Assembly: GCF_013373365.1 (NCBI RefSeq)
Contig: NZ_CP035925.1
Coordinates: 3,534,001 to 3,598,000, forward strand
Length of the DNA stretch: 64,000 nt
Reading direction: 5' to 3'
Source: Lentibacillus sp. CBA3610
GTDB lineage: Bacteria > Bacillota > Bacilli > Bacillales > Amphibacillaceae
The position numbers were made by a program, and so were the translations under genes. Each line of letters begins with the position of its first letter. The stretch's first letter is position 1. Shown one piece after another: positions 2,487-63,745 of the stretch. The notes beneath the pieces were generated by a model. The model was not told the DNA's origin. It was given only the letters and a program-made list of their open reading frames with translations, and searched no databases.

Positions 2487-2695
2487 ATCAGCGGAAACGT
2501 GTCGTGAATCAGCAGAAGAAGCAAAGTATCAGCAGGAGAGCGGATGAATCAACAGAAGAGCGGGTAAATCAGCAGAAGAAAAGAAATATCAACAGAAGAG
2601 CGGATAAATCAACAGAAGAGCAGAAATATCAACGGAAGAGCAGAAATATCAGCAGTAGAAAAGAAATATCAACAGAAGCGCATATGCATCAGCAC
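2487..2695. repeat. 20-bp spaced-word array A (ATCARCAGAAGAG)
   Basis: Eleven imperfect units whose ATC core starts at 2487, 2508, 2528, 2548, 2568, 2588, 2608, 2628, 2648, 2668 and 2688. The step is exactly 20 bp after the first. The core word is ATCARCAGAAGAG, followed by about seven looser bases. It lies between the ddl stop codon and the terminator, so it would be transcribed as ddl 3' UTR. A long reading frame through it is only a by-product of 3 x 20 = 60 bases. Confidence 0.9.
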
Positions 2696-2727
2696 AAAAA
2701 GGCTGCTCCTTTATGGAACAGCCTTTT
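2696..2727. terminator. Bidirectional terminator, ddl / nitroreductase
   Basis: Stem AAAAAGGCTG-TCC pairing with GGA-CAGCCTTTT. A-rich and T-rich flanks on either side suit termination from both converging genes. Confidence 0.8.
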
Positions 2728-2728
2728 C

Positions 2729-3289
2729 CTATCCTTTGAATGTGGTGAATTTCTCCGCAGCGGGTATACGGTCTTTTTTGGCAGGTTTTTCATCAAAATA
2801 GCCAAGATGCAGGAAGCCGACGATTTTTTCATTTTCTCCGACGTTCAGAATTTCTTTGACTTGTGAATCATAAATGTGTGAATTGGTTTTCCAGACGACG
2901 CCAAGTTGCTGTTCCCAGGCAAGCAGCCAAAAGTTCTGGATCATGCTGGCGGTTGCCCCGAAGTTTTCATCCCATTGCTTCGTGCTCTTGGGTTCATCCA
3001 TCACGACAATAAGAAAGGCGGTTGGCTCTCTGAGATATTCCAGGCGGTTTTGCTGTCTTTCTTCCGGATAGGTGGCCGCAACTTGTTGCGCAAAGCTTTC
3101 GGTTTGAAACGGTCCAACGAAAATGAAGCGCCAAGGCTGACGAACGCCATGTGTGGGTGCCCAGACGGCATCTGCCAAGAGTTCCTTTACTGTTTCCTCG
3201 GTAACAGGTTTATGATTATAGTGTTTTTTGACAGAACGACGGTCACGGATCACCTTTTGCAGTGCGGTTGGCTGTTTTGTCAGTTCCAT
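2729..3289 (-). CDS. Nitroreductase family protein
   Basis: FMN-dependent NAD(P)H oxidoreductase of the nitroreductase fold, 186 residues, cytoplasmic. Seen: the FMN-phosphate motif RDRRSVKKH near the N-terminus, WAPTHGVRQPWRF in the middle, and a C-terminal VGFLHLGYFDEKP segment typical of the family. The frame is open 30 codons further upstream, but the start at 3289 has a GGAGG site at the right spacing and begins where the family homology begins. The natural substrate cannot be told from sequence. It is monocistronic and converges on ddl. Confidence 0.85.
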   Translation of the reverse strand: MELTKQPTALQKVIRDRRSVKKHYNHKPVTEETVKELLADAVWAPTHGVRQPWRFIFVGPFQTESFAQQVAATYPEERQQNRLEYLREPTAFLIVVMDEPKSTKQWDENFGATASMIQNFWLLAWEQQLGVVWKTNSHIYDSQVKEILNVGENEKIVGFLHLGYFDEKPAKKDRIPAAEKFTTFKG

Positions 3290-3421
3290 TTGATGTCCTC
3301 CCACATTCGTATTATATAAAATATATGCGGATAATTGATAATTATTTTCAATTACATTTGTAGCCATATTGTAGCTCATAAAGCATAAAAAAGCAAAATG
3401 AATAAATTTTTAAAAAGGGTC

Positions 3422-3508
3422 TTGATATGTGAAATTAATCACGTATAATGGGTGAGGAAGTTGGATTAAAAACCAAGTATTGTTAAATTGTATGTGAAAT
3501 AATTCACA
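3422..3508 (+). promoter_or_regulatory. Promoter with two Rex/FNR-type operators
   Basis: TTGATA (3422-3427) and TATAAT (3444-3449) are 16 bp apart. The whole spacer is the palindrome TGTGAAATTAATCACG (3428-3443). A second site, TGTGAAATAATTCACA (3493-3508), lies about 40 bp past the start of transcription. Both fit the FNR/CRP pattern TGTGA-N6-TCACA, and the second also fits the Rex pattern in all but one base. Positions within and downstream of the promoter argue for repression. Confidence 0.7.
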
Positions 3509-3527
3509 AATATAGGGGGGGAGAAAA

Positions 3528-4562
3528 ATGAAATCGTTTCTAAATCAAAAAGGGGTTTCGTTGTCTATTCGAGAATATGTCATTACGGCATTAAGTTATA
3601 TGGCACTGGGGTTGTTCTCGTCTTTAATCATTGGTCTTATTATCCAGACAATCGGGGAGCAGGCGGTTGCTTTGGGATTTGACAATCTCGAATTTATGGT
3701 TGAAATGGGCGGCTATGCCATGGAAACCAAAATCATGGGCGGTGCTATTGGTGTAGCGATTGCCTATGGCTTGAAGGCACCACCGCTTGTCCTTTTTTCA
3801 GCACTTTTTGCCGGAGCATTCGGAGCTGAACTTGGCGGACCTGCCGGGAGCTATGTGACAGCGTTGTTTGCAACAGAATTTGGGAAAATTGTCTATAAAA
3901 CGACGCGTGTGGATATTATTGTAACGCCATTTGTGACCATCTTCATCGGTTTTGTAGTCGGAACGTTTATTGGCCCGCCGATTAACACATTTATGGTCTG
4001 GTTTGGCGAGATTATTAACTGGTCAACCGAACAGCAGCCGTTTATCATGGGAATTCTAGTTGCGGTTTTGATGGGATGGGCATTGACGGCTCCAATATCC
4101 AGTCTTGCTATTGCCATCATGCTTTCGATTGACGGGTTGGCTGCTGGAGCGGCAACGATTGGATGTGCGGCGCAGATGATGGGCTTTGCAGCATCCAGTT
4201 ACCGTGATAATGGGTTTGGCGGATTGCTGGCACAAGGAATTGGCACATCGATGCTGCAAATCGCAAATATATTGAAAAAGCCAATTATTATTGTCCCACC
4301 GACTATTGCCGGAGCTCTTTTAGCACCATTTGCGACCGTCTGGCTTGGGCTAACGAATAATGAGCTTGGTGCCGGTATGGGAACAAGCGGGCTGGTCGGC
4401 CAAATTATGACCTTTGAATCGATGGGCTTCTCATGGGATGTTTTTTGGTCGATGATGGTTCTGCATGTTGTTGCACCGGCAATCATCAGTCTTGTGATTG
4501 CTGAATGGTTCCGGAAAAAAGGCTGGATCAAGCCGGGCGATATGACAATTGAATATGAATAA
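3528..4562 (+). CDS. PTS EIIC-like membrane protein (PTS_EIIC_2 type)
   Basis: A 344-residue, very hydrophobic protein with about ten membrane segments. It starts with a short cytoplasmic stretch (KSFLNQKGVSLSIREYVI) and has glycine-rich loops such as FGAELGGPAGSYV. I read it as the stand-alone EIIC-like family, which lacks IIA and IIB domains; no other PTS gene is nearby, so sugar transport is unproven. The start has a G7 ribosome site six bases away. The promoter holds two redox-type operators, which suggests expression tied to oxygen or NADH status. Confidence 0.65.
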   Translation: MKSFLNQKGVSLSIREYVITALSYMALGLFSSLIIGLIIQTIGEQAVALGFDNLEFMVEMGGYAMETKIMGGAIGVAIAYGLKAPPLVLFSALFAGAFGAELGGPAGSYVTALFATEFGKIVYKTTRVDIIVTPFVTIFIGFVVGTFIGPPINTFMVWFGEIINWSTEQQPFIMGILVAVLMGWALTAPISSLAIAIMLSIDGLAAGAATIGCAAQMMGFAASSYRDNGFGGLLAQGIGTSMLQIANILKKPIIIVPPTIAGALLAPFATVWLGLTNNELGAGMGTSGLVGQIMTFESMGFSWDVFWSMMVLHVVAPAIISLVIAEWFRKKGWIKPGDMTIEYE

Positions 4563-4664
4563 TAAAGTCGCCTGCGTATGTATTTTGTCACATGATCGTT
4601 AAAGGTTCTCTGTTATACTGGTGGCAAAAGCTATACATTTTTTCAGTAGAAAGGAAGATGTGTG

Positions 4665-5117
4665 ATGGATCAGTTTATGGAGCGGGCAGTTGAGCTTGCG
4701 ACGGAGAACGTCCGAGATGGCGGGGAGCCTTTTGGTGCCGTCCTCGTAAAAAATGATAAACAGGTGACCGAGGGTGTCAATGAACTGCATAGTCGGTTTG
4801 ATATTACGGCACATGCAGAAATTCAGGCAATGCGAAAGGCACAAAAGATGATGCATTCACATGTGTTACAGGGGTATACGATGTACGCCAGTGGTGAGCC
4901 GTGTCCAATGTGTCTGACAGCGATGTACTTTGCGGGTATTGAGACGATTTATTATTGTGCTACATCTGAGGATGCAGTTGATGCAGGCTTAGGTAAGGCG
5001 AAAAATATTTACGAGGAATTACAGAAATCGAAAGACGGTCGCTCAATCGAAATGATTCATATGCCATTAAAGGATGCCCAGGAGGATCCGATGCAGCTAT
5101 GGAAGGAACGCTCCTAG
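4665..5117 (+). CDS. guaD: Guanine deaminase / nucleoside deaminase family
   Basis: Zinc-dependent deaminase of the cytidine-deaminase fold; guanine to xanthine is the likely reaction. The 150-residue protein has the catalytic HAE motif, the PCPMC zinc ligands, and overall similarity to Bacillus GuaD. A GTG lies one codon upstream, but the ATG at 4665 has the better spacing to AAGGAAG. The stop codon TAG is part of the CTAG target duplication of the IS element that follows. The uninterrupted ancestor would have ended at the same codon, so the gene is intact. Its own terminator has been pushed away by the insertion. Confidence 0.8.
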   Translation: MDQFMERAVELATENVRDGGEPFGAVLVKNDKQVTEGVNELHSRFDITAHAEIQAMRKAQKMMHSHVLQGYTMYASGEPCPMCLTAMYFAGIETIYYCATSEDAVDAGLGKAKNIYEELQKSKDGRSIEMIHMPLKDAQEDPMQLWKERS

Positions 5118-5300
5118 GAGCCTTGGACAGAAGTATGCCGTAATTTATGTAAAATAATGTATATTCGATAATTGATTAAAATTGCTTTAAATATGCTTTG
5201 GATGAAATCGCCTAATACCCTTTCAATGCAGGGTTTATAAGGTTTTAACCATTAGAAAAGCACTCTTTTAATGTACAATGTTTTTGAGAGAAAAACAAAC

Positions 5301-5373
5301 CAACGAAGAGTGCTTTGAATTTCATTGTACCTTATTTGTTTAAAAAACGCCACAGTTTAGCCACTCTTCGTTG
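5301..5373 (+). promoter_or_regulatory. Leader hairpin of the outer IS
   Basis: Twelve-base perfect inverted repeat, CAACGAAGAGTG (5301-5312) with CACTCTTCGTTG (5362-5373), ending 24 bp before the transposase start. Such structures often keep outside transcription from entering a transposase gene; that role is inferred here. Confidence 0.5.
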
Positions 5374-5841
5374 AATCTCAAAACGAGGAGAGATTAAATG
5401 GCACAACGAAACCCCGATGCCCCTAATCAGATTGTTCTTTTCCAGGAATTATTACAGGACAAGATTGAACATAAGCCACATGCTGCCCGGTTCTTTTCGT
5501 ACTTGGCAGAGGAGTTGGATCTGACCTACTATGAACGCTTACGAATGGGGCGCCACCTACACCCGCCGTATCGTAACGGCTGTTATTTTTTACGCCCATG
5601 TACCATGGACATTATGCAGCTCAGAAGATCTGTCGTTTGCCGAGGACAGTATTGGCGCACAGTGGATATATCCGGCATGCGTATGCCAAGTTATAAACAG
5701 TAGAACGAACGATAGATGCTCTTTGGCTGAAGTGGACCGCCTTTTCATTTCAAGTCATTGGAATCTGTGAAGGTTGTCCCTGATTGGCCGACAACGCATG
5801 CATATTGATGGTACAAAAGTCAAAAGCCAATGCCTCGAAGC

Positions 5842-7468
5842 CAGCACTGAGGATAAATTTATTTTCATATTCACTTGTTTCTTTGAAATTCACTATATTA
5901 AACACTGAATATTCGGAAATTATTTTTCTCCTATTTTACCAAAAAAGAGAAGCCGAATTTTCAGGGGATAATTTTTTGAAAACTTTACACAAATAGATTT
6001 CTTTGCTTGGCATCACATCCTTTGCTAATATGAATCTATCAGGTGAACCGCACTGTATAGGTTTACCATTTCGTTATATCCTCGTCTGGTTAGTCGTTTT
6101 GTTCTGATGGTCTCTAACAGATTTGAGGATATTTCTTTTGCCGTCTTTTTGACACGCTTAAGTATGTTTGAGCCATTTTCAAATAGCTGCATCAAAATAT
6201 CCGTTATTTGTGTCAAAAGATAATGGTTCTTCATGGCCGTGTAATCATGGCTTGATGCATGTCGATTATGATATTCGGAATATGCTTTTTGTCTGTTGAA
6301 ACCTTCATTTTCAATCTTCCAGCGGCTTCTGCCTGCATTAGAGAAGCTTTCGACAGTTTTTATCCGTGATTTTGATATCGGTCAAAAACATGAAACGCTT
6401 TTGGCCATCTGCCGTTTGATCGTACCTTCCAATACATGAATGTCCCAATCATTATACGCAATGTGATTAACCCAACGAATCTTGTCCTGCTGCCCTTTCC
6501 ATTAGTCTCTTCATCTTATCCAACGCATGAAACTCTTCACTGATGCTTTTGATGCGGTCTTCTTTAAAGCGTAACAGGAACTTCCAATGGTTGTTATGAC
6601 AGGTTTTAAATACGTTCTCACATGCATACAGACTATCGGCAATAATGCAGATTGGCAGCCTCTTAAATGTTTGATTTAATCGGGAAGCCATACGATAAAA
6701 CGCATTTAATTCACAGTCCTGTTTGGGACCTCTTCTGACTTCATCTCAATAAACTCGGAATCAACACTGAAAACCCATATTGCCAACACCAGTTTCGCCT
6801 CCAGGACATGATGCATGTAAACAGTCTTTCGACATTCCCTTCTTCGTTCTTTGTATTTCCCGCCTCAAGCATGATCGCAATGCTTCTGATTGAAACGTGA
6901 ATAACCCGGTCCATCAAAATTAATAAATCGCCCCAATTACTTGCCGCCAATACGGCCATCTCAAAACCACCTCTTTTCAATAACTCCCTGATCATATAAG
7001 TCCGTATGTTACGCAGTTCATCCGGTTCCAGCGCGAGAGGAGTCATTGATGGTGTCGTAATGTGGTAATTCCTCCAAGGTTTCAATGTTCAACGCCTTTT
7101 TGATGTTGACAATACATTCATCTTTGTTGAATTGATTCGTCATCGATCGCATGCTTTTTCAGTCACATACATTTCAGGATGATCATGAAAAGAAGGATAT
7201 CGCACCCATAATCGATATAGCTTTGATGGCGTGGATCAGAGACATGTTTCATTATGTTTTGCAAATCTTTAAAAAAGTGTTTCCTGAATTTCATGAGCTC
7301 GAAAAAATAATTTTCACCTTTTTCCATGTTTCTTTTTATTTTTCTCGTTACCATCTTAAAATCCCCCTAAAATATGCGGTATAATAGGCTTTCTCGTAAT
7401 TATATTATACCATGTTTTTCCATATTTTAGGTCGTATTAGCTCGAAAAATTTTTACTCTTCAGTGCTG
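5842..7468 (-). mobile_element. Inner insertion sequence nested in the IS1182 element
   Basis: A 1627-bp element with imperfect terminal inverted repeats that share CAGCACTGA followed by A/T-rich sequence. It is flanked by a 9-bp duplication CCTCGAAGC (5833-5841 and 7469-7477). It lies inside the transposase codons for KANASK of the outer element. Its own transposase is on the minus strand and badly decayed. The length and 9-bp duplication resemble the IS4 superfamily, but I cannot assign the family. Confidence 0.85.
6025..7354 (-). pseudogene. Decayed DDE-type transposase of the inner IS
   Basis: Fragments in several minus-strand frames form one degenerate gene, beginning near 7354 with VTRKIKRNMEKGENYFFELMK. 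Later pieces include LEPDELRNIRTYMIRELLK, then LPICIIADSLYACENVFK (a likely catalytic-aspartate strand), then CHNNHWKFLLRFKEDRI, and finally KNHYLLTQITDILMQLFENG near 6234-6175. The protein looks like a DDE transposase of IS4/ISNCY character; the exact family is uncertain. Several stops and frame changes make it non-functional. Confidence 0.65.
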
Positions 7469-8956
7469 CCTCGAAGCACAAAGCGATGAGTTATGAGCAC
7501 CTGACAAAGAAAATCGATCGCCAAACAAACGATATGGAAGCATTATATGACGTTATTAAACCATACATAGATGAAGTGGAGCAGATGCCGGACCATAAGC
7601 TGAAAGCTTGTATACATGAACAGGCGGAGCAAGTGCAGCGTCTTTTGCGGAAACAGCATCAATCAGAATTACAACAAAAGGAACAGCAGGTATTCAACCT
7701 CGATTCAGAGGTAGAGGAAACCGAAACGAAGCGTGTTACGATGAGAAGTGTAAAATCAGTTGCCCTGTTTTAAATGATGTGCCAGCGAATCATTTGAACT
7801 GACAGGGATGTCTTTGAACGAACGTCGCATTTACACAGGATCGAATTCACACGATGGAAACAGGCAAAACAACACTGGAGCAAAGTGGCAAGGAAAATGG
7901 GAATAAAAAGATCCCACCAGGAAAACAAATCAATTTTACAGATCCAGATTCAAGTATCATGCTTACGAAACACCATGGTGTGCAGCAATGTTACAACCAT
8001 CTCGCCTGGGTTGATGTCAAAGCGCATATTATCCTTGGTGCACATACAAGCAACAATGCTTCCGATCAACTTGGGTTACAACCAACGTTGGAACATGCGG
8101 AAAAAATGTGCGGCTCGTTAAAAGACATACAAGCCGGCGCCGATGCCGGTTTTTTCTCAGCCAATAATATTGCTTTCATGAGAAGGAAAGGGACGGACTT
8201 TTATGCCTCGTACGCCGTAGCGAAATCCCCGTATGCCAAGGATAAGTTTGCGTATGATGCACAGAGTGATACCTACACATGCCCAGAGGGCCAGATGCTT
8301 TCACGGCAGAAAACAAAGAAATCAGGAAAGATTGGAGGAATACAGCAATAAAGAAGCCTGCCAGTCCTGCCCGCTTTAGCCCCGCACTGTACGAAAGCAA
8401 AGACGGTATTCGGAAAATAGAAAGGGATATGGAAAATGACCCTATCAGGGAAGAAGCGAAAGCGAAGGCTGACAGTGAGAAAGGTAAAGAAATTCTGAAA
8501 CAGAGAAAAAGCGTCCCGGAACCTGTATGGGGCAACATTCAAGTGCAGGATGAGTGGAAACAGATGCATGGACGTGGGATGGACAATGCTTCACGTGAAT
8601 TCAAATTGCACTGCGTCATGCACAATATCCGGAAAATCGTGAAAGTCTACTTTAACAGTCCGTCGTATCATGAAACGTCCACCAGAGGAACAATTATACA
8701 AGGATTACCGGCTAATAAAGCAGACTTAATGAGAGGAGGTGAATAACGTTTCGCTCAAGAAATTAAAAAATAACATAGTGAAGCTTATTTGGTGTGCCTT
8801 TTTTAAATGTCCTCTAATTCTTACATTAAACAAGCCAAAATGAAAACCCGGGCGTTTTTTTAAAGAAAACTTTTGTCCAAGACTCCTAGCCAATGAACCA
8901 TCACAGATATTATGATAGGGTAAAGCAAGCTGGATTATACAGAAGGGAGCGTCGTG

Positions 8957-9820
8957 ATGAACAGTCTAATCGAAAAAGCTTTACATCATGCGGACGATCA
9001 TAGCACTATAGAACAGGCAAAGCGGATAGCGGGCGGATCAATCAATGAAAGCTATTTCGCGAAAACCAATAACGGACAATACTTCATTAAATATCATTCA
9101 GACGCTCCGGATCGCTTTTTTGAACTGGAAGCAAAAGGTCTGGATCTGATCAGGGAAACCAATTCGATTGCGGTGCCCAATGTATTTGCATTTTCTGATG
9201 AAAAACAGAATGCATTTCTCGTTATGGAGTGGGTGGAAGGCACACGAGCGGCGGATACTGACTGGAAATTAGGTGATGCGATTGCTGAAATGCATCACGC
9301 CTCAGGTGAGAAGCATGGTTTCGATTATCATACCTTTATTGGATCGCTGCCGCAGCCGAATGGGTTATTTTCAAGCTGGCTTGAGTATTACCGGGATCGC
9401 CGGCTTGGGGCTCAATTACAGCTGGGAATCGATCGGGGCATGATGCCAGGCAAACGGCGTGACCGGATGGAAACATTACTGGAAAAGCTGGATAAATGGG
9501 TGCCGGCCAATGTGGAGCCATCCTATCTGCATGGTGATTTGTGGGGTGGCAACTGGCTGGCGGGACCCGGTGGTGAACCAAATGTCATTGATCCGTCATT
9601 CCTTTATGGCGATCGTCACTTTGAATTGGCCTTTACCGAAGTATTTGGCGGCTATTCCAATGAATTTTACCGGGCTTATCAGGAGCGGTTTCCGTTGTCA
9701 CCGGATTATGAAGACATCAAACCGCTGTATCAGCTGTATTACTTGCTCGCTCACTTGAACATGTTTGGTGAACCATACGGGCGGTCTGTGGACACGATTT
9801 TAAAAAGGTATGTTGGCTGA
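8957..9820 (+). CDS. Fructosamine kinase family protein
   Basis: Predicted to phosphorylate fructosamines or ribulosamines on glycated amines, leading to their release; cytoplasmic. The 287-residue protein has the aminoglycoside-kinase-like fold motifs: GGSINESYF at the N-terminus, the catalytic HGDLWGGNW, and DPSFLYGDRHFELAF as metal-binding aspartate and tail. ATG at 8957 is preferred to the GTG one codon earlier because of its spacing from AGAAGGGA. It begins 67 bp past the target duplication of the outer IS. Confidence 0.88.
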   Translation: MNSLIEKALHHADDHSTIEQAKRIAGGSINESYFAKTNNGQYFIKYHSDAPDRFFELEAKGLDLIRETNSIAVPNVFAFSDEKQNAFLVMEWVEGTRAADTDWKLGDAIAEMHHASGEKHGFDYHTFIGSLPQPNGLFSSWLEYYRDRRLGAQLQLGIDRGMMPGKRRDRMETLLEKLDKWVPANVEPSYLHGDLWGGNWLAGPGGEPNVIDPSFLYGDRHFELAFTEVFGGYSNEFYRAYQERFPLSPDYEDIKPLYQLYYLLAHLNMFGEPYGRSVDTILKRYVG

Positions 9821-9935
9821 CGCCTTTGACACAATTTCGTCATAAAACATGCTGTAGATGTGCTGAATCTCACAATTTCTCCCTATGCTGAATCATGTAT
9901 GATAGAGATACATGATACGATTGGTGGGATAATCC

Positions 9936-10388
9936 ATGACATTTTATGAATTTCTCGTTTTTATACATGTGTTTTCAGCCATATTAGGTTTGGGCCCTGG
10001 GTTTATTATGATTTTTGTTGTAACCGGAGCTGAAACGATGACCGAATTGAGACATGCTTTTCTCATCCGGAACCGGCTGCATATTTTTGTGATGGTTGGC
10101 GGGACAATGCTTTTGATAACCGGTCTTTGGATGGGAGCACTGAATACTGCCCTGTTCAGCCAGGGCTGGTATGTGTTGAGTCTGACATTATTCCTGATTG
10201 CGCTTGCTTTTGGCCCGATCGTTTTGTCGCCACGGTCGAAGCCGGTCAAACAATTGCTTAAGGAGCACCAGGGAGATGATATACCTGATGAATATTATGT
10301 GCTGTCGAAAAAACTCTTTTTCTATGAACGGATTGAAAATGTCATTTTTCTGATTGTGATTGCCTTAATGATTTTAAAACCTTTTTAA
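9936..10388 (+). CDS. DUF2269 integral membrane protein
   Basis: A 150-residue protein with four hydrophobic segments and short polar loops. The N-terminal FLVFIHVFSAILGLGPGFIM and the R-x-R-x-H motif (RNRLHIFV) in the second segment match what I know of DUF2269. Function is unknown. The next gene starts 85 bp downstream on the same strand, so the two may be co-transcribed up to the terminator at 10942. Confidence 0.7.
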   Translation: MTFYEFLVFIHVFSAILGLGPGFIMIFVVTGAETMTELRHAFLIRNRLHIFVMVGGTMLLITGLWMGALNTALFSQGWYVLSLTLFLIALAFGPIVLSPRSKPVKQLLKEHQGDDIPDEYYVLSKKLFFYERIENVIFLIVIALMILKPF

Positions 10389-10472
10389 TCAAGTGTTTTG
10401 TTAAAAAATCTGATAGTTCCACCCTCGCCTGTCTTTTTCATTGTTATAATAATAGAGAAGGGTGGGGTGGAA

Positions 10473-10940: not shown

Positions 10941-10941
10941 G

Positions 10942-10972
10942 AAAGGCGCACATGCCCGGATGTGCGCCTTTT
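10942..10972. terminator. Bidirectional terminator
   Basis: Perfect 12-bp stem AAAGGCGCACAT / ATGTGCGCCTTT with loop GCCCGG. It serves the SRPBCC gene and, in reverse, the convergent VanY-like gene. Confidence 0.9.
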
Positions 10973-10985
10973 CAATCGTCTAATA

Positions 10986-11999: not shown

Positions 12000-12141
12000 C
12001 CAATTCTCTCCCCATCATACGATTTACTTATCCTATCTATGATAACACGTCATGTTTGAGGTGGTCTATGGCAATTCGAGGATGCCTGCTCAGCAGCTGC
12101 ACGGAATAATCAAACGTTTGTTGAAGTAAACGGTGACAACG

Positions 12142-12178: not shown

Positions 12179-12183
12179 AATCG

Positions 12184-20797: not shown

Positions 20798-20893
20798 AAA
20801 CGCCAAAGTGTGAGTGGAAAACGCCAAAGTTCAGTCCAAAAACGCCAAAGTTAAAGTAAGAAACGCCAAAGTTAGTTGGAAAAACGCCAAACA
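20798..20893. repeat. 21-bp spaced-word array B (AAACGCCAAAG)
   Basis: Five units whose CGCCAAA core starts at 20801, 20822, 20843, 20864 and 20885, a step of exactly 21 bp. The conserved word is about 11-13 bases (AAACGCCAAAGTT) with six to eight variable bases between words. It lies after the fni terminator and ends 81 bp before the MBL hydrolase start, so it may be outside or at the edge of that gene's promoter. Confidence 0.9.
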
Positions 20894-43989: not shown

Positions 43990-44216
43990 ATGGGCGTGAA
44001 TGCAACATGGGCGCGTTAGCAGTCAATATGGGCTTGAAACCAAAAACATGGGCGAGTTGGCAGCTAATATGTGCCCAAAAGCGAAAACATGGGCTGGTTG
44101 GCAGTCAATATGGGCCCGAAACCGGAAATATGGGCGCATCGGCAGCCAATATGGGCCGTAGAACGAAAACATGGGCTCATCGCAGTCAACATGGGCCCGA
44201 ATAACAAAACATGAGT
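43990..44216. repeat. 20/21-bp spaced-word array C (ATGGGC)
   Basis: Twelve ATGGGC words (one reads ATGTGC, one ATGAGT) begin at 43990, 44007, 44028, 44048, 44069, 44089, 44110, 44130, 44151, 44171, 44191 and 44211. After the first, the steps alternate 21 and 20 with one late exception. They form a 41-bp higher unit: a GTTGGCAGTCAAT-type spacer alternates with a CCGAAAACGAAAAC-type spacer. It lies between the divergent cwlK and plsY-like genes, upstream of both. Confidence 0.92.
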
Positions 44217-46396: not shown

Positions 46397-46510
46397 GTGA
46401 GCGAAGTGCCTAAGCGTGCGATGGGTCCCAAACCGTGCGAGGAGCTGCTGAAACGTTCGGGATGGAATCAAAATTGTGCGGGGAGCATCACTGACGCGTG
46501 CAAGAGAAAT
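46397..46510. repeat. Degenerate 20-bp spaced-word array D (GTGCG)
   Basis: About six GTGCG-like words begin at 46397, 46416, 46435, 46455, 46476 and 46498, at steps of 19, 19, 20, 21 and 22 bases. The fuller word resembles CGTGCGAKGGR. It is more worn than the other arrays. It fills the gap between pdxK and pncA. Confidence 0.6.
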
Positions 46511-47764: not shown

Positions 47765-48013
47765 ACATATAATATATGAAACGTTGATGAGGATAAGTCA
47801 GCTTGTATGTCTTTGACAGAGAGGAAATGGCTGGTGTGAATTTCCAAGACATAACTGGAACCTGCCTCTGAGTTCGCCGTCAGGATGGCTTTTGCCAAAA
47901 GATGTGCGCGGTTTAAACCGTTATGTCATGAAGTGTGCAGTACGTTTGGTCGGCTGCAAACAAGGGTGGTACCACCAGGCCTCGGTCCCTTATTTCAGGA
48001 CGGAGGATTTTTT
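47765..48013 (+). promoter_or_regulatory. Pro T-box riboswitch of proS
   Basis: T-box AGGGTGGTACCACCA at 47963-47977, terminator stem CCTCGGTCC / GGACGGAGG (one mismatch, 47980-48006) and TTTTTT after it. The likely specifier is CCT (47861-47863) in GGAACCTGCCTCTGAG context, a proline codon, fitting proS downstream. Confidence 0.9.
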
Positions 48014-54761: not shown

Positions 54762-54762
54762 T

Positions 54763-55071: not shown

Positions 55072-55132
55072 ATGAATGAAACGTGCTGATGATTAAAGAC
55101 AAATTGACAGATACAAGGGGAGAGGGACGTTC

Positions 55133-55579: not shown

Positions 55580-55649
55580 AGTATCATTCATTTGTATTGA
55601 CACATAGTATGATTAGCAATGCATTTTTAGAAAATGGAGGCTGTCAGCT

Positions 55650-56312
55650 ATGATTACGAATGATCAGCTTAAACAATGCAAAAACATACTATTGGAACGA
55701 CAGAATGCGTTAATCCCCCAGGTGAAGGATCATTTCGGAACGTCGCTGGAATTGACGAAACAATCAATGGATGAATTATCCAGTTATGATAACCACCCCG
55801 GAGATATGGGAACGGAGATGTTTGAGCGTGAAAAGGATATCGCTCTGAATGAACATGCGGAACAGGAATTGAAAGAGATCAATGCAGCCCTTCATGCGAT
55901 AGCGGATGGCACATATGGCATCTGCAAAGAATGCGGAGCGGATATTCCATTTGAGCGGCTGGAGGCTGTCCCTACAGCAGACCGCTGTTTTGAGCATGCT
56001 GAACATAATAATAATGCTCCGGTTGACCGTCCTGTAGAAGAAGGCGTATTTAGCCCGAATATAAATCCGGATGAAATAACCGCTGAGGAACAAACAGGAT
56101 ACGATGCGGAAGATGCATGGCAGGAAGTAAGCCGGTATGGCACATCGGAAACAGCATCGGATTTTTATGGCGACCGTGATCATTATGATGAAATGTATCC
56201 AAATAGTGATGAGAATGTCGGAAGTGTCACCGATGAGGAAAGCTTTTTGGCAGCTGATCAGGACGGGAATTTCACGGGTGTTACACCAAATCATGACAAG
56301 TATGAAGAATAG
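55650..56312 (+). CDS. yteA: YteA-family protein with DksA/TraR zinc finger
   Basis: A 220-residue protein. Coiled-coil N-terminus (DQLKQCKNILLERQNALI), then the conserved SSYDNHPGDMGTEMFEREKD block, then a DksA/TraR-like finger YGICKECGADIPFERLEAVPTADRC, in which the last ligand is Cys. A long acidic tail follows (about 120-220). This matches Bacillus YteA, known as a sporulation-associated protein family; it probably contacts RNA polymerase or nucleic acid, which is inference. Confidence 0.85.
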   Translation: MITNDQLKQCKNILLERQNALIPQVKDHFGTSLELTKQSMDELSSYDNHPGDMGTEMFEREKDIALNEHAEQELKEINAALHAIADGTYGICKECGADIPFERLEAVPTADRCFEHAEHNNNAPVDRPVEEGVFSPNINPDEITAEEQTGYDAEDAWQEVSRYGTSETASDFYGDRDHYDEMYPNSDENVGSVTDEESFLAADQDGNFTGVTPNHDKYEE

Positions 56313-56397
56313 GTAATGGCAATGCTGCCGCAAAATTTGGCGAAGATGAAACAATCATAACTTCCAATTCGTATAGTATCATAAGGAGTTGATAAGA

Positions 56398-56604
56398 ATG
56401 GAAGATAATCGCGGATGTATCAAATGCGGCAGCACGGATGCTGAGCAGAATGAAGCAGCCATGACCGGGACAGGCTTATCCAAGATGTTTGATGTACAGA
56501 AAAATCAGTTCATCGTTGTATCATGCAAAAACTGTGGCTATTCGGAGTTCTACAATAAGAATAGTTCGACCGGCAGTAATATTTTTGATTTCTTCTTTGG
56601 ATGA
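56398..56604 (+). CDS. Small zinc-ribbon protein (YpzJ-like)
   Basis: A 68-residue protein with two CxxC pairs, CIKCGS and SCKNCGYSEF, making one zinc ribbon, and a hydrophobic end (NIFDFFFG). It matches the YpzJ/COG3478 type of predicted nucleic-acid-binding zinc ribbon proteins. ATG at 56398 is nine bases from AAGGAG; a TTG three codons earlier is not used. The stop abuts a strong terminator. Confidence 0.8.
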   Translation: MEDNRGCIKCGSTDAEQNEAAMTGTGLSKMFDVQKNQFIVVSCKNCGYSEFYNKNSSTGSNIFDFFFG

Positions 56605-56635
56605 AAAAAAGCTCCTGATCAGGGAGCTTTTTTAA
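56604..56635 (+). terminator. Terminator after zinc-ribbon gene
   Basis: AAAAAAGCTCC pairs with GGGAGCTTTTTT across TGATCA; perfect but for one flanking base. Confidence 0.92.
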
Positions 56636-56698
56636 AAGAAAATATAAAACCCATGGCTGCACAGCTCTGCTGCTGTGGTATTTTTATGGGAACATTAG

Positions 56699-56925
56699 CG
56701 CGATATGGCACGTCCGGCAAAAGTGCTGATTCGCGCGAAAAGGGGGAAATATCGCGCAACAATCATCCGATTTCGCGCGGCGCAGCCCCAATTCCGCGCG
56801 ACAACTGCGTGATTTCGCGCAGCACCCTTTCGACTTCGCGCATCGACCCCTGATTTGACGCACCACCGCCCCGAAACTGTGCGACATCAAACAATTCAGT
56901 GTCATCCTATCATGATTTCACACGA
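56699..56925. repeat. 21-bp spaced-word array E (TTCGCGCG)
   Basis: CGCGC-like words begin at 56732, 56753, 56774, 56795, 56816, 56837, 56858 and 56879, each exactly 21 bp apart. A degenerate one in phase lies at 56711 and worn ones at 56699, 56900 and 56919. The fuller word is GATTTCGCGCR with about ten looser bases. It lies between two convergent genes (zinc ribbon and zinc-ribbon membrane protein), beyond the first gene's terminator. The palindromic GCGC core makes it strand-neutral. Confidence 0.92.
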
Positions 56926-56973
56926 CACAGCTGCGAATTAGCAGTTACTGAAAACTGCAGTCAAAATACCTTC

Positions 56974-57786
56974 TTAAAAACCGCCGAACATCGAGTCCAT
57001 TAGGCTGCCAAGAATCGCACTGAGAAAGGACTGGGTGAAAAAGCCAAATGCCAGGATTGTGATTATGTATAAAACCAGTAATACATAAACCCGGTCAAAA
57101 CCCTCTGCCGGCTGTTCCAATAAAATAAAGGTAGGTATGAACAGAACTAATCCGAGAATACTAATCAGAATCAGTATCACGGCAAGCGCCGATATCCCAA
57201 TTAATGAAAAAATAATTCCTGCTGCGAATAAAAGAACGAATGGAATTAAATAGGCACCGTACTTGGCTATGACATCAGGAAATGTAACCGTCTGTACGGA
57301 TAACTTTGCACCGGCAAACGTTAATCCCGCAATCAGGAATTCCAACAGAACAAAGATTATAATCGGCAGGATAAAACTGTCAAAAAACGAAATACTTCTG
57401 AAGAATCCTGCTGGAATAGCGTTGAGTACAAAGTGGTAGCTTGCCGCTAACAATAAAGCTGATAAAACAATTATGATGATTCCGGAAATCACGTCTGTAT
57501 GGTTTGCTTTTTTCGCTTCGCTTGGGTTTTTAACCAGGGTGACAAAGAAATGACCAAAGTCACTGCCGATCGTTTGCAGTTTGTCCATTGCCTCATTGTT
57601 TTTCGCTGAATATTCCTGGTCCTCTGTTGAATTTTCTTGTTCTTCTGTAAAATGGTCACCCGCAGAATCATGGTCGGTTTCTGTGCTTGTTTCCTTATCA
57701 TGCATCTGCTCAACGTCCAATTGTGCTCCGCAATTAGTGCAAAACTTTCCTTCAGCCGTTTGTTCACCACATGAAGGGCATTGCAT
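56974..57786 (-). CDS. Zinc-ribbon membrane protein (YIP1-like)
   Basis: A 270-residue protein: zinc ribbon with CPSCGEQTAEGKFCTNCG at the N-terminus, an acidic, Gln-rich linker to about residue 80, then five to six membrane segments with the YIP1-like profile (GIIIIVLSALLLAASYHF, FVLLEFLIAGLTFAGAKL). Function is unknown. The start follows AAGGAAG. It is convergent with the small zinc-ribbon gene. Confidence 0.75.
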   Translation of the reverse strand: MQCPSCGEQTAEGKFCTNCGAQLDVEQMHDKETSTETDHDSAGDHFTEEQENSTEDQEYSAKNNEAMDKLQTIGSDFGHFFVTLVKNPSEAKKANHTDVISGIIIIVLSALLLAASYHFVLNAIPAGFFRSISFFDSFILPIIIFVLLEFLIAGLTFAGAKLSVQTVTFPDVIAKYGAYLIPFVLLFAAGIIFSLIGISALAVILILISILGLVLFIPTFILLEQPAEGFDRVYVLLVLYIITILAFGFFTQSFLSAILGSLMDSMFGGF

Positions 57787-57895
57787 TTTATCACTTCCTT
57801 TTTAAATAGGTACCTAAAGTATAATGGTTATTGCTGTATTTTTCATTATATAACGGTTTCGGGATAGTTGAGAAGAATTTAAATATGCTGATTCT

Positions 57896-57999
57896 CTTTT
57901 TGAGATGCCGGGGATCAGACGCCGGGCTGGGGAGAAATCGGTGGCGCTTCACTGATGCCTGTACGGAAGGCGTTATCGGAATTTCTATGTTTTCTTTTC
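57896..57999 (+). repeat. Intergenic hairpin repeat, copy 2 of a two-copy family
   Basis: Matches 42040-42140 over about 100 bases. It includes GATGCC / GGCGTT-type arms and ends in TCGGAATTTC and TATGTTTTCTTTTC. It lies between the YIP1-like gene start and the htrB terminator, in the same orientation as copy 1. Confidence 0.6.
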
Positions 58000-58009
58000 A
58001 AATAAAATA

Positions 58010-58036
58010 AACCTGCAGCTGATTCAACTGCAGGTT
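58010..58036 (-). terminator. htrB terminator
   Basis: AACCTGCAG pairs with CTGCAGGTT, loop nine bases. On the minus strand a short T-rich tail (TTATTTTATT) follows. Confidence 0.8.
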
Positions 58037-58057
58037 CTTAAAAGGAGAAAGAATCTA

Positions 58058-59380
58058 TCATTGTTGTTCTTGCTGACGCTCAGCCAAATCCATTGAAACG
58101 GTTTGTGCCTCACCATTTCGATAGAACTCAAGTTCAACTGTTTCCCCAATTTCCGCTTCATTGTACAGAAATGTACGTAAATCCACGATTGAGGTTATCT
58201 GATTACCATTGATTTGCGTGATTACATCGAATTGCTGCAGGCTTGCCTCATCTGCAGGTGATCCGTTTTCTACTTGGGCAACGACCATACCACCTTCAAC
58301 ATCTTCCGGAACCTGGATTTGGTCACGGTATTGTGGTGGTACTGTATTAATAGGGGCTGAACTGATGCCAATGTATGGCCGTGCCACTTGTCCCTCTGTT
58401 TCAAGCTGTTCGATGATTGGTGTCGCGGTGTCAATCGGAATAGCAAACCCAATACCTTCAACGGCTGTTTGTGCGATTTTCATTGAATTGATTCCGATTA
58501 CTTCACCATCACTGTTGACAAGTGCACCACCACTGTTTCCCGGATTAATGGCAGCATCTGTTTGAATAACTTCAGTAATCCAATCCGGTTGACCATCGCC
58601 GTTTGTATCCATATTAACGGAACGATCCAGACCGCTGATGATACCTCTTGTCAATGTATTGGCGAATTCCATTCCAAGTGGGTTGCCAATTGCAATGACT
58701 GTTTCCCCAACTTCTGCGTCATTTGATGAACCAAGGTTTGCAACGGTATCGATTTGGGATCCATCAACTCTCAGAACGGCAAGGTCGCTTAATTGATCCG
58801 TACCAAGAACTTCTGCCTCTATACGTTCATCATTGTTAAGGGCTACTTCGACTTCCTGTGCATCTGCAACAACATGCTGGTTCGTGACGACATAGGCATT
58901 ACCGTCTTCTTTTTTATAGAGGATGCCTGAACCTGTGCCGGATTCTTCACTCGGTTCCCAAATATTTGTCTGTTGCATTCGGGTGACACCTACAACAGCT
59001 TCTGATGCTTCCTCCATATTTGTGGCGGTTTCCTCATTATCTGAAGCAATTGTTTCGGTAACTTCCGGTGATGATTCGTCTGATTGATTATTTTCCGTGG
59101 CAGCATCTGAATTATTACCGTCATCATTATTTGGTATAATATTGGTAGTAAATAATAGTACGACCACAATGGCTGAGACGACACCGCCAATGATTCCGCT
59201 CAGAAAATTGCCTGATTTATTCCGTTTCGGCTTTTTATCCTGATTCGCTTTGGCATTTTGTCTGGCTGATTGTGCGATACCGCCGTTTGCATCCGGATCC
59301 GATTGGTGGACCGGTTCATTATCCGGATGCTCCTGATTATCTCTATTTTCATTATTATGTTGATGATTGTTAAAATCCAT
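58058..59380 (-). CDS. htrB: HtrA-family membrane serine protease
   Basis: Quality-control protease at the outer face of the membrane. 440 residues: a polar N-terminus of about 55 residues, a membrane anchor (SGIIGGVVSAIVVVLLFTTNI, about 61-80), an acidic linker, a trypsin-like domain with His in VVTNQHVV, Asp in LSDLAVLRV and Ser in NPGNSGGALVN, and one C-terminal PDZ domain (PYIGISS ... LEFYRNGE). It is divergent from cssRS, the same arrangement as Bacillus htrB-cssRS, and is probably induced by CssR on secretion stress. Confidence 0.88.
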   Translation of the reverse strand: MDFNNHQHNNENRDNQEHPDNEPVHQSDPDANGGIAQSARQNAKANQDKKPKRNKSGNFLSGIIGGVVSAIVVVLLFTTNIIPNNDDGNNSDAATENNQSDESSPEVTETIASDNEETATNMEEASEAVVGVTRMQQTNIWEPSEESGTGSGILYKKEDGNAYVVTNQHVVADAQEVEVALNNDERIEAEVLGTDQLSDLAVLRVDGSQIDTVANLGSSNDAEVGETVIAIGNPLGMEFANTLTRGIISGLDRSVNMDTNGDGQPDWITEVIQTDAAINPGNSGGALVNSDGEVIGINSMKIAQTAVEGIGFAIPIDTATPIIEQLETEGQVARPYIGISSAPINTVPPQYRDQIQVPEDVEGGMVVAQVENGSPADEASLQQFDVITQINGNQITSIVDLRTFLYNEAEIGETVELEFYRNGEAQTVSMDLAERQQEQQ

Positions 59381-59551
59381 GAATATATCACCTCTTTACG
59401 TTATCATGAAGTCAACTCTTATTATAATCATCACATTTGGTAGGATTTTGGTGCAAATATGGCAAAAGTGTGTAAATGATAGTTTCAATATTGACATTCC
59501 CGTTATTCAGTGAAAATAATCATAACAAATCAATGATGGAGGCGTCCTTTT

Positions 59552-60244
59552 ATGAGTCATCATATCGGAGTAGTGGAAGATGATGCAAATATCCAAAACA
59601 TTGTATCGGCCTATTTAAAAAAAGAAGGCTTTCATGTAACAGTCATGGAATCTGCTGAGGCTGCCTGGGACCTCTGGGAAACACAGCGGCCGGATATGTG
59701 GATACTGGATATAATGCTGCCTGGCATGGATGGTTACGAATTCTGTAAAAAAATTCGCCAGGAAAGTGATGTACCGATTATAATCATTTCGGCTAAAGAT
59801 GATGAAGTTGATAAAATACTCGGGCTTGAACTTGGGGGCGATGATTATTTAACCAAGCCATTCAGCCCCCGGGAACTATTGGCGCGTGTTAAGCGTGTAT
59901 TCAAACGTGCTGACCATTCTACCGGGAGCAGTCAAGAATCCCATGACCGGATTAAAGTTGATAATTTATTGATTCATGAGAATGATCGCCGGATTTTTTG
60001 GAATGGTGAAGAGAAAGATATGACCACAAAGGAATTTGATATGCTTTTGCTATTGGCGAAAAATATCAATAGAGCCTTTTCCCGGGAGGAATTACTGATC
60101 AGGATTTGGGGGGAAGACTACTTCGGCAGTGATCGTGCCGTTGATGACCTCGTTAAACGAATACGTAAAAAACTGCCCGACATTCAACTGGAGACGGTAT
60201 GGGGTTATGGTTATCGGCTGCGAAGTGAAGAGGAATCGTTATGA
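59552..60244 (+). CDS. cssR: Response regulator CssR, OmpR family
   Basis: A 230-residue regulator. Receiver domain with the phosphorylation site Asp 53 in WILDIMLPG, acidic pocket VVEDDAN, Lys in LTKPFSP; then a winged-helix DNA-binding domain (TTKEFDMLLLLAKNINRAFSREELLIRIWG ... VDDLVKRIRKKL ... GYGYRL). Similarity in the receiver and the neighbouring htrA-type protease support CssR. The start follows GGAGG. The stop overlaps the cssS start. Confidence 0.88.
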   Translation: MSHHIGVVEDDANIQNIVSAYLKKEGFHVTVMESAEAAWDLWETQRPDMWILDIMLPGMDGYEFCKKIRQESDVPIIIISAKDDEVDKILGLELGGDDYLTKPFSPRELLARVKRVFKRADHSTGSSQESHDRIKVDNLLIHENDRRIFWNGEEKDMTTKEFDMLLLLAKNINRAFSREELLIRIWGEDYFGSDRAVDDLVKRIRKKLPDIQLETVWGYGYRLRSEEESL

Positions 60245-61560
60245 AACTGCAATCCCAGTTAAATTTAGCTTTTACTGCCCTCATGCTGGTTATCCTTGGC
60301 GTTACAGGGTATGTGATTTATTCCATGATACTTGGGATGCTGATTGACAATGAGCGGACGGAGCTGCAGCAAAAAGGGGAATTACTTATTCAGGTTTTGA
60401 ATGAACAAGGCCAGGGACAGGGAAGTATTGAGGATTTCAGCAACTTTTTGCGGGAACAGGATCTGCAGTTATTCCTTTATGACCGTGCTCAGGATCAGGT
60501 ACTGATGTCAACGATGCCCGAGCAATATGTCAGGGGGTTCTCAGCTAATAATTACTTTGCGGATGAACGGGAAGAATTATGGGAAGCAGGCAATAATAAA
60601 TTTGTCACGTCGCGCATTCTGATTTATCCGGATCGAACGACACTGGAATTGGTTTTATTGACCCCATTGACGGATCTGCAGACAGTGCAGCAGGATTTTT
60701 TCAGGCGGATGGTTATCGTGTTCATCATCGGTACTATGGCGGCGGTTCTGCTCAGTTATTTATTAACCAATAAATTAGTAACGCCTTTAACAAAGTTGAA
60801 AAAACAACTGAAAAAAATCGAAAAACGAAAATTTGATGATATCGAACGCATAAAAGCAACAGGTGAAATTAAAGAAGTCGAACAAGGGCTGTACGATATG
60901 GCTACGGAGCTTGAGCGGTATATGAAGTCACAGCAGGCGTTTTTCCAAAATGCGAGCCACGAGCTGAAAACACCGCTCATGACCATACAAGGTTACGCGG
61001 AAGGTATTCGTGATGGTGTCTTTAATGAAAAAGATAAGGAAAAAGGACTGGAAATGATGGTGACAGAGGTTAGCCGGTTGAAGACCATCATTAATGAAAT
61101 GATACTTCTGGCAAAATTGGACAGTGAGCAAGCTGAGTACAAAGATGAGCAAATAAGGGCGACTGAGCTGATCGACCAGGTATTGGACCGGGCATTGCCA
61201 TTAGTCAGTGAGAAAGACATCACGCTGAATCATTCTGTGGACAACGAAAGTACCTTTATGGCCGATCAGGAAAAATTACTGCGGGCTTTGTTGAATATTA
61301 CCGTTAATGCCATTCGTCATGCTCATTCACGTGTTAATGTCACGGTTGAGGAAAAGACGATTATAATTGAAGATGACGGGGAAGGTATAGCAAAAGAGCT
61401 CATTCCGCATATTTTCCACAGGTTCGTTAAAGGTAAAACTGGAGAGACCGGGCTTGGGCTGGCGATTGCACGGGCGATTGTAGAGCAGTCCGGCGGCAAA
61501 ATCATGGTGCGGGATTCAGAGCTTGGTGGAGCAAAATTCGTGATTGCTTTTCCTGAGTGA
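60241..61560 (+). CDS. cssS: Sensor histidine kinase CssS
   Basis: A 439-residue kinase sensing secretion stress. Membrane segments at about 9-34 and 157-177 enclose an extracellular domain of about 120 residues. HAMP follows (LTNKLVTPLTKLKKQLKKI), then HisKA with His 240 in FFQNASHELKTPLM, and a HATPase domain with N-box NITVNAIRHA, DDGEGI and GLGLAIARAI. It overlaps cssR by four bases, so the pair is translationally coupled. Confidence 0.88.
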   Translation: MKLQSQLNLAFTALMLVILGVTGYVIYSMILGMLIDNERTELQQKGELLIQVLNEQGQGQGSIEDFSNFLREQDLQLFLYDRAQDQVLMSTMPEQYVRGFSANNYFADEREELWEAGNNKFVTSRILIYPDRTTLELVLLTPLTDLQTVQQDFFRRMVIVFIIGTMAAVLLSYLLTNKLVTPLTKLKKQLKKIEKRKFDDIERIKATGEIKEVEQGLYDMATELERYMKSQQAFFQNASHELKTPLMTIQGYAEGIRDGVFNEKDKEKGLEMMVTEVSRLKTIINEMILLAKLDSEQAEYKDEQIRATELIDQVLDRALPLVSEKDITLNHSVDNESTFMADQEKLLRALLNITVNAIRHAHSRVNVTVEEKTIIIEDDGEGIAKELIPHIFHRFVKGKTGETGLGLAIARAIVEQSGGKIMVRDSELGGAKFVIAFPE

Positions 61561-61583
61561 GAATATATCCCGCATCTAATGGT

Positions 61584-61682
61584 CAGTAAGCCGCCAAAAA
61601 ACGGCGGCCAACTGACCCTAAATGCCCGATTCTGTTCAACTAACATGCAGTAGGAAAAACCGCCCTACTGCATGAAGTTTCA
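61584..61682 (+). repeat. Hairpin repeat family, shorter copy
   Basis: Begins CAGTAAGCCGCC and has the hairpin GCCGCC / GGCGGC (61590-61608), then AAATGCCCGATTCTGTTC, then a second hairpin TGCAGTAGG / CCTACTGCA (61645-61671), and ends TGAAGTTTC. It aligns with 51510-51733. It lies between cssS and typA and may also act as the cssS terminator, although no T run follows. Confidence 0.65.
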
Positions 61683-61740
61683 CTTTATGTTACAATAGGA
61701 TAGTTTTGAACCACTCTGTAATGATTAGGAGCGTACGTTT

Positions 61741-63675
61741 ATGCAATTAAGAGAAGATATTCGTAACATTGCAATTATCGCACACGTTGATCATGGCAAG
61801 ACAACACTTGTTGATCAGATGCTGAAATACTCGGGCACTTTTCGTGAAAATGAACAAGTGGATGAACGTGCTATGGACACGAACGATATTGAGCGTGAAC
61901 GCGGGATTACGATTTTATCCAAGAACACAGCAATTAAATATGAAGATACAACCATCAATATTCTTGATACCCCGGGCCATGCCGACTTTGGCGGCGAAGT
62001 GGAACGGATTATGAAAATGGTTGATGGTGTCTTGTTAGTTGTTGATGCTTATGAGGGTTGTATGCCGCAGACGCGTTTTGTTTTGAAGAAAGCATTGGAC
62101 CAAAAGCTGACACCGATTGTTGTTTTGAATAAAATAGATCGGCCGAATGCCCGTCCGAATGAAGTGATTGATGAGGTATTGGATTTGTTCATTGAACTTG
62201 GAGCGGATGATGAACAATTGGAATTCCCGGTCGTTTATGCATCTGCAATTAACGGGACATCAGGTGAAGAGCCGGATGAGCAGATGGAAACAATGGACCC
62301 TGTTTTTAAGCCAATTTTGAGTCATATTCCTGCACCAGATGATACACAGGAGGAGCCGCTGCAATTCCAGGTTACGCTGCTTGATTATAATGACTATGTA
62401 GGCCGGATTGGTGTCGGTCGTGTTGTCCGTGGCACCATCAGTGTCGGTCAGCAGGTTGTTGTATTGAAGAAAGACGGGACAGAAAAGCCATTTCGTATCA
62501 GTAAATTATTCGGATTCATTGGCTTAAAACGGATTGAAATCCAGGAGGCAAAAGCCGGAGATATTGTAGCGATAGCTGGTATGGATGATATCAATATCGG
62601 CGAAACAATCTGCTCACCGGAAAAACCCGAGGGCCTGCCATGGCTCCGTATTGATGAGCCGACGCTGGAGATGACATTTGTGACGAATAATAGCCCATTT
62701 GCCGGACGTGAGGGTAAATATATTACATCCAGGCAAATTGAGGAACGCTTGATGAAGCAGCTGGAAACAGATGTCAGTTTGCGTGTGAATCCAACTGAAA
62801 CACCGGATGCCTGGACCGTTTCAGGGCGCGGGGAACTCCATCTTTCCATTTTGATTGAAAACATGCGCCGTGAAGGGTTTGAGCTGCAATTGTCGAAACC
62901 CCAGGTCATTATTAAAGAAATTGATGGGGTTAAATGTGAACCGGTAGAGCATGTCCAGGTGGATGTACCAGAAGAATATACAGGTCCGGTGATGGAAACC
63001 TTGGGTGAACGAAAAGGCGAAATGCTTGATATGGTAAACCAGGGAAATGGACAGGTGCGTATTGAATTTAAAGTGCCATCCCGTGGGTTGATTGGTTATG
63101 CAACGGAATTTATGTCACTCACACGCGGTTATGGCATGCTGAACCATACGTTTGATAGCTATGAGCCGGTTGCGAAAGGCCAGGTTGGTGAACGTCGTGA
63201 GGGTGTACTTGTTGCCATGGAAAATGGTAAAACGTCGACTTACGGCATTATGCAACTGGAGGACCGCGGTGTGATATTTGTTGAACCAGGAACCGACGTT
63301 TATGCCGGTATGATTGTTGGGGAGCACAACCGTGAGAATGATTTGACGGTCAACATCACGAAAGAAAAACATTTAACCAATGTTCGCTCAGCAACAAAAG
63401 ACCAGACAGCAACTATCAGGAAAACACGTGATATGTCCCTTGAGGAAGCTATTCAATATTTAAATGATGATGAATACTGTGAAGTAACACCTGAAACAAT
63501 CCGCCTTCGCAAAAAGTTATTAAATCAAAATGACGTGAAAAAGCAGCAAAAAAATCGAAATCGGGGTAAAGTGAAACTTCATTCAGTGGGACGCTTTTCT
63601 CCGCTGATGAAAAGGAACAATAATCCGATAGATCCGGCGATGGCATTGGAAGCTGTTGCCGGTTTTTTGCTGTGA
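61741..63675 (+). CDS. typA: Ribosome-associated GTPase TypA/BipA, frameshifted C-terminus
   Basis: Translational GTPase used under stress and cold. Domains: G domain with AHVDHGKTTLVD (P-loop), ERERGITI, DTPGHADF and NKIDRPNA; then beta-barrel, EF-G-like III and V, and C-terminal domain, all normal to about residue 600. The usual end (LRKKLLN ... basic tail) would be read by adding one A to the A5 run at 63538-63542: it then reads KKAAKKSKSG and stops at 63567-63569. As written the frame shifts and adds about 36 residues that run through the gene's own terminator. Confidence 0.93.
   Translation: MQLREDIRNIAIIAHVDHGKTTLVDQMLKYSGTFRENEQVDERAMDTNDIERERGITILSKNTAIKYEDTTINILDTPGHADFGGEVERIMKMVDGVLLVVDAYEGCMPQTRFVLKKALDQKLTPIVVLNKIDRPNARPNEVIDEVLDLFIELGADDEQLEFPVVYASAINGTSGEEPDEQMETMDPVFKPILSHIPAPDDTQEEPLQFQVTLLDYNDYVGRIGVGRVVRGTISVGQQVVVLKKDGTEKPFRISKLFGFIGLKRIEIQEAKAGDIVAIAGMDDINIGETICSPEKPEGLPWLRIDEPTLEMTFVTNNSPFAGREGKYITSRQIEERLMKQLETDVSLRVNPTETPDAWTVSGRGELHLSILIENMRREGFELQLSKPQVIIKEIDGVKCEPVEHVQVDVPEEYTGPVMETLGERKGEMLDMVNQGNGQVRIEFKVPSRGLIGYATEFMSLTRGYGMLNHTFDSYEPVAKGQVGERREGVLVAMENGKTSTYGIMQLEDRGVIFVEPGTDVYAGMIVGEHNRENDLTVNITKEKHLTNVRSATKDQTATIRKTRDMSLEEAIQYLNDDEYCEVTPETIRLRKKLLNQNDVKKQQKNRNRGKVKLHSVGRFSPLMKRNNNPIDPAMALEAVAGFLL
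63634..63668 (+). terminator. typA terminator, inside the extended reading frame
   Basis: Eleven-pair stem CCGGCGATGGC / GCTGTTGCCGG (with G-U pairs), loop of seven, then TTTTTT. It lies at codons 632-643 of the extended frame, so the ancestral gene ended before it. Confidence 0.85.
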
Positions 63676-63683
63676 TTGGGTGG

Positions 63684-63745
63684 TAATCAGCAGAAAGCGG
63701 GAAATATCGTCAGAACAGGAAAATTATCAATCAGTATCGCTTTTG
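63684..63745. repeat. 20-bp spaced-word array F (same word as array A)
   Basis: Three units with ATC at 63686, 63706 and 63726, exactly 20 bp apart, in AATCAGCAGAAAGCGGGAA-like context. The word ATCAGCAGAA matches array A after ddl, 61 kb away in this window. Confidence 0.7.

What the first reader, a model, noticed from the sequence alone, without database searches (positions are those of the whole stretch)
2487..63745. Six intergenic arrays of a short word repeated at a fixed 20-21 bp step
Arrays at 2487-2695, 20798-20893, 43990-44216, 46397-46510, 56699-56925 and 63684-63745 share one design: a conserved word of 6-13 bases, variable bases between, and a step of 20 or 21 bp (two turns of B-DNA). 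The word differs by array (ATCARCAGAAGAG, AAACGCCAAAG, ATGGGC, GTGCG, TTCGCGCG), but the first is reused at 63686. They occur in 3' UTR, between divergent genes and between convergent genes, so no shared role in transcription fits. Phasing on one face of the helix suggests a binding surface for an architectural protein, or a copying mechanism that preserves step rather than sequence. They are not CRISPR: the spacing is too short and the spacers are not unique cassettes. I know of no described family with these properties.
Basis: seen in the sequence. Interest (0 to 1): 0.85.

Follow-up and report, generated by a model that had tools for sequence, protein, structure and literature searches.

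The report
Replication-oriented 20-21-base DNA repeat arrays
Between its genes this Bacillus relative carries short DNA words repeated every 20 or 21 bases, a repeat type already described in other bacteria, but here the words point the way the chromosome is copied rather than the way nearby genes are read, a clue to a role that is still unexplained.

Summary
Four of the six arrays are beyond chance (0 of 2000 shuffles); array 4 is marginal (3 of 2000) and array 6 is not above chance alone (452 of 2000). In 864 kb sampled, intergenic self-similarity peaks at lags 20 and 21 and their multiples. The kind is known: Subirana and Messeguer described 20-21-nt constant-length, variable-sequence bacterial repeats with a short characteristic word (PMC8161180). 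What appears new is polarity. Words recur at many loci with dissimilar spacers, and in this genome 42 of 44 arrays (family F5, 1 of 2, set apart) carry the word on the leading-strand sequence, switching strand with the replichore. Where both flanking genes lie on the lagging strand, 11 of 11 arrays in three species follow replication, not transcription. Best reading: asymmetric protein-binding words every two helical turns, turned over by slippage, oriented with replication. A functionless mutational process tied to the replication strand is a serious rival. A Sutcliffiella family shows no polarity (6 of 12), so polarity is not general to the class.

The parts
2487..2695 (+). Array 1, family F1 (word ATCRRCAGAAGA, step 20), ten words in register, between a D-Ala-D-Ala ligase gene (+) and a nitroreductase gene (-)
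   Evidence: 0 of 2000 shuffles; words every 20 bp; flanking genes by Pfam
20798..20893 (+). Array 2, family F2 (AAACGCCAAAGTT, step 21), five words, between two + genes, after a terminator-like hairpin seen by eye
   Evidence: 0 of 2000 shuffles; five words every 21 bp
43990..44216 (+). Array 3, family F3 (AAYATGGGC, alternating 20/21), ten words, between divergent genes (peptidase M15 -, glycerol-3-phosphate acyltransferase +)
   Evidence: 0 of 2000 shuffles; spacing; Pfam
46397..46510 (+). Array 4, degenerate F4-like words (around CGTGCGA), marginal
   Evidence: 3 of 2000 shuffles; left out of the strong set; five words at 2-3 mismatches on +, one on -
56699..56925 (+). Array 5, family F4 (ATTTCGCGCGA, step 21), between convergent genes
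   Evidence: 0 of 2000 shuffles; five words every 21 bp
63684..63745 (+). Array 6, possible remnant of F1 words just after prkA; not above chance alone
   Evidence: 452 of 2000 shuffles; relatives G001, G005, G006, G007 have strong arrays at this site

Best explanation
The arrays are DNA-level elements of the known 20-21-nt constant-length repeat class. Each is a run of an asymmetric word of about 9-13 bp, one per two helical turns, hence on one face of the DNA, kept while the bases between drift. I infer that the word is bound by one or more sequence-specific, direction-sensitive proteins, and that the binding is used in a replication-oriented process (fork passage, nucleoid layout or segregation). 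Copy number changes by slippage or unequal exchange in whole units. Shown by computation: step, word/spacer difference, reuse of words, replication polarity in the focal genome, a word that differs between species. Inferred: the protein, the selection, and the role.
For: Neighbouring words lie almost only at multiples of two turns: of 339 neighbour distances 229 are 20 or 21, 70 are 40-42, and 331 in all lie near a multiple; 8 do not (one of them 31); no opposite-strand pair lies within 130 bp. Word identity within arrays 0.89-0.91 against spacer 0.36-0.73; spacers of different arrays 0.31-0.55, six of seven families at 0.31-0.42. Replication polarity: G000 42 of 44 arrays (F5, 1 of 2, set apart), strand switching with the replichore, Fisher p 1.3e-10; 11 of 11 at sites whose two flanking genes are both on the lagging strand, 18 of 20 of those genes scanned having Pfam domains. 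F4 words standing alone in intergenic DNA are also polar, 20 to 1, and F5 6 to 1. Averaged over loci, the centre base of F4 is C 0.81 in G000 (11 loci), A 0.83 in G005 (20) and mixed in G011 (7); the three species share an F4 array at one DUF2935 gene in the same polarity.
Against: No protein was identified. Several unrelated words per genome would need several proteins or a loose one. Word conservation is partly built in, because arrays were found with word patterns allowing 1-2 mismatches. Five of 91 distinct arrays break polarity even with each family's sign fitted. Lone F3 words in intergenic DNA are not polar (6 to 6). Polarity is absent in a Sutcliffiella family (6 of 12) and mixed in Oceanobacillus halophilus (1 of 3). 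G011 and G005 arrays lie almost all on one replichore, so the strand switch is shown mainly in G000.
Confidence: 0.42

Rival explanations
1. Replication-strand-dependent birth or loss without function: arrays form or survive only in one orientation because slippage, template switching or single-strand annealing acts on the lagging-strand template.
For: Turnover in whole units, with exact or near-exact multi-unit repeats inside some arrays. Arrays are A-rich on the leading-strand sequence in F1, F1b, F2, F3, F4 (AT skew 0.28-0.53), like the A bias of Borg repeats on each replichore's coding strand (PMC9879509, passages seen). The near-palindromic Sutcliffiella word is not polar. Lone F3 words are not polar. 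The strand with the leading sequence, which is the lagging template, folds slightly better than its complement (mean -0.63 kcal per 100 nt, Wilcoxon p 0.0055, 93 rows).
Against: Plain slippage copies spacer and word alike, but spacers differ far more than words. F5 (5 of 6) and F6 (3 of 3) have no A skew yet are mostly polar. The folding difference changes sign between families (5 of 7 one way, F1b and F4 the other).
Confidence: 0.33
2. A known polar-motif class: FtsK/SpoIIIE guiding sequences (KOPS/SRS), Architecture Imparting Sequences, or Chi sites for AddAB.
For: Leading-strand polarity. AGCGG, recalled as the B. subtilis Chi, is 3.91 per kb in arrays on the leading-strand sequence against 0.83 in intergenic DNA, while its complement is not enriched (0.61 against 0.57).
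Against: AGCGG is absent from F2 and F5 and near-absent from F3 (0.3 per kb). No rise towards the terminus is seen: 4.5, 3.3, 2.8, 1.4 per 100 kb from origin to terminus, a trend the other way that is not significant (permutation p 0.09). Lone copies in genes are not clearly polar (F1 9 to 7, F3 16 to 13; the other families 0-3 copies), though F1 has more of them than its reversed control (16 against 3).
Confidence: 0.1
3. RNA elements of 3' UTRs or small RNAs, as proposed for the 52-nt class.
For: Some arrays, such as 1 and 6, begin right after a stop codon; 52-nt repeats of B. coagulans are transcribed (PMC8625621, passages seen).
Against: Word strand follows replication, not the flanking genes, at 11 of 11 discriminating sites; arrays also lie between divergent genes; no Rfam family reached threshold at the window's arrays.
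Confidence: 0.06
4. Ordinary local minisatellites with no shared cause.
For: Some arrays are clearly recent duplications.
Against: One unit length across the sample, the same words at 2 to 14 array loci per family in the G000 stretches held, and the orientation rule.
Confidence: 0.03

Closest known systems
Constant-length 20-21-nt tandem repeats of Bacillus and other bacteria (Subirana and Messeguer, PMC8161180; their J Bacteriol 2020 paper is not held)
   Same: Unit 20-21 nt, variable sequence, mostly non-coding, several families per genome, short characteristic word, species-specific; two helical turns already noted; nucleoid protein already proposed
   Different: Replication polarity, word families shared across a genus with species variants, and sites that bear different words in different species are not mentioned in the parts read ('orientation' does not occur in the text)
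52-nt repeats of Bacillus coagulans and relatives
   Same: Constant length, variable sequence; 52 is close to five helical turns (my inference)
   Different: Other unit length; polarity not tested for want of copies (3 hits in one array)
Tandem repeats of Borg elements (PMC9879509, passages seen)
   Same: An intergenic 20-nt unit with one 21-nt copy is described; [quoted passage not shown]
   Different: Borg units are perfect copies that arise independently; here words are kept and spacers differ
KOPS/SRS and Architecture Imparting Sequences
   Same: Leading-strand polarity
   Different: Not phased arrays, and they rise towards the terminus (PMC5993296 seen in listing only; the rest recalled)
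Plasmid iterons and centromere repeats
   Same: Head-to-tail sites at about two turns bound by an oligomerising protein (recalled)
   Different: Single locus per replicon; here many chromosomal loci and several words

Membership tests
20-21-nt constant-length tandem repeats (Subirana and Messeguer) | Unit of 20-21 nt, other unit lengths rare | tested here: met
20-21-nt constant-length tandem repeats (Subirana and Messeguer) | Several sequence families per genome, species-specific | tested here: met
   some words are shared within the genus in variant form
20-21-nt constant-length tandem repeats (Subirana and Messeguer) | Non-coding | tested here: met
   lag 20: 15 intergenic, 0 coding; of 94 word arrays one lay inside a called gene
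20-21-nt constant-length tandem repeats (Subirana and Messeguer) | Short characteristic word within the repeat | tested here: met
   column information
CRISPR arrays | Repeats of about 23-47 bp with spacers of similar length (recalled) | tested here: not met
   word plus spacer is 20-21 bp
CRISPR arrays | Neighbouring cas genes | not tested
   no cas search was made
KOPS/SRS, AIMS | Leading-strand polarity | tested here: met
KOPS/SRS, AIMS | Rising density towards the terminus | tested here: inconclusive
   no rise; opposite trend, p 0.09
Chi sites | Shared recombination pentamer (AGCGG, recalled) | tested here: not met
   0 per kb in F2 and F5, 0.3 in F3
Known structured RNAs | Match to an Rfam model | tested here: not met
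   only three T-box leaders in the window; arrays elsewhere not searched
Protein-bound iteron-like arrays | A cognate DNA-binding protein | not testable with these tools
   needs binding experiments

The most novel reading that the evidence does not exclude
These arrays mark replication direction along a bacterial chromosome: a trans-acting, direction-sensitive DNA-binding system reads two-turn-phased words placed in intergenic DNA, and its word preference drifts across a whole genome together, so sites persist while words are replaced between species.
Probability: 0.25. Interest if true: 0.88.

Novelty: new variant of a known kind. Interest (0 to 1): 0.6.

Why it matters
The 20-21-nt and 52-nt constant-length repeats are described in print as without an obvious function (PMC8161180). 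A strong orientation with replication, held even where flanking genes point the other way, argues against the RNA idea, narrows the cause to replication-linked selection or mutation, and makes it testable by inverting one array. It also gives a way to sort families: polar (this genus) and non-polar (the Sutcliffiella family).

Tried and rejected
Whole-window autocorrelation is dominated by codon period 3; local windows and intergenic counts were used instead. Pooled autocorrelation after prkA over 93 loci gave no peak at 20-21, because few species have arrays there; per-locus scoring gave 9 of 93 loci at 0.65 or more, 7 of them at 20, 21, 40 or 42. Depletion near the terminus: a trend only (p 0.09). 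Chi: rejected as a general cause. Strand folding as cause of polarity: significant overall (p 0.0055) but of both signs among families. 52-nt polarity: too few copies. Virgibacillus proomii word: one array only. Of 42 merged segments in the first G000 catalogue, 14 (AT-rich or weak; array 4 and one F1-like segment among them) were dropped before the density count, and the window was left out of it. One array inside a called gene was left out of the polarity tally (G011 F4). F1 and F1b count two G005 arrays twice: 93 rows are 91 arrays. F5's leading orientation was first set wrongly from one array (1 of 6; 5 of 6 if flipped). G005's F4 arrays come from places listed first, all on one replichore; the pattern lists were capped. 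Several of the Sutcliffiella local skews are weak (0.005 to 0.04). Literature: (combined terms on repeats, leading strand and the like) listed no paper; the 2020 J Bacteriol paper is not held, so a report of polarity there cannot be excluded.
Full report
What the window is. It is bases 3534001-3598000 of a single 4.04-Mb contig. By its serine-kinase gene prkA (61741-63675; gene name recalled) its nearest named relatives are Lentibacillus salicampi (89% identity) and Virgibacillus species (88%). GC skew and gene strand put the origin between 3.20 and 3.30 Mb and the terminus between 1.0 and 1.1 Mb, so the window's + strand is the leading-strand sequence.

Noticed in passing
window 568-816 and 858-1105 (-), 47775-47993 (+): Three T-box leaders, two of them in tandem.
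   Followed up: no
window 57590-57655 (-): A 21-bp repeat with two F1-like words on the - strand inside an ORF without Pfam match, opposite to the polarity rule; could be chance coding repetition.
   Followed up: partly
L103:3051-3517 (G000) and L173:16700-16922 (G005): Composite arrays: F4 words run straight into F5 words; one flanking gene is 93% identical between the two species, so the composite may be conserved.
   Followed up: partly
G011 sample (L149-L168): 52-53-nt intergenic periodicity is raised as well (5 and 3 segments), so both repeat classes may coexist in one genus.
   Followed up: no
G023 (Oceanobacillus halophilus), contig 3: A very large 20-nt family (TTTATAGGCG), 405 word pairs genome-wide, some 30 units in one array.
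   Followed up: partly
families F2, F5, F6 of G000: On the leading-strand sequence the words CGCCAAAGTT, CGCTAAAGTT and CGCTGTAGAT look alike, as if one superfamily had drifted (seen by eye).
   Followed up: no
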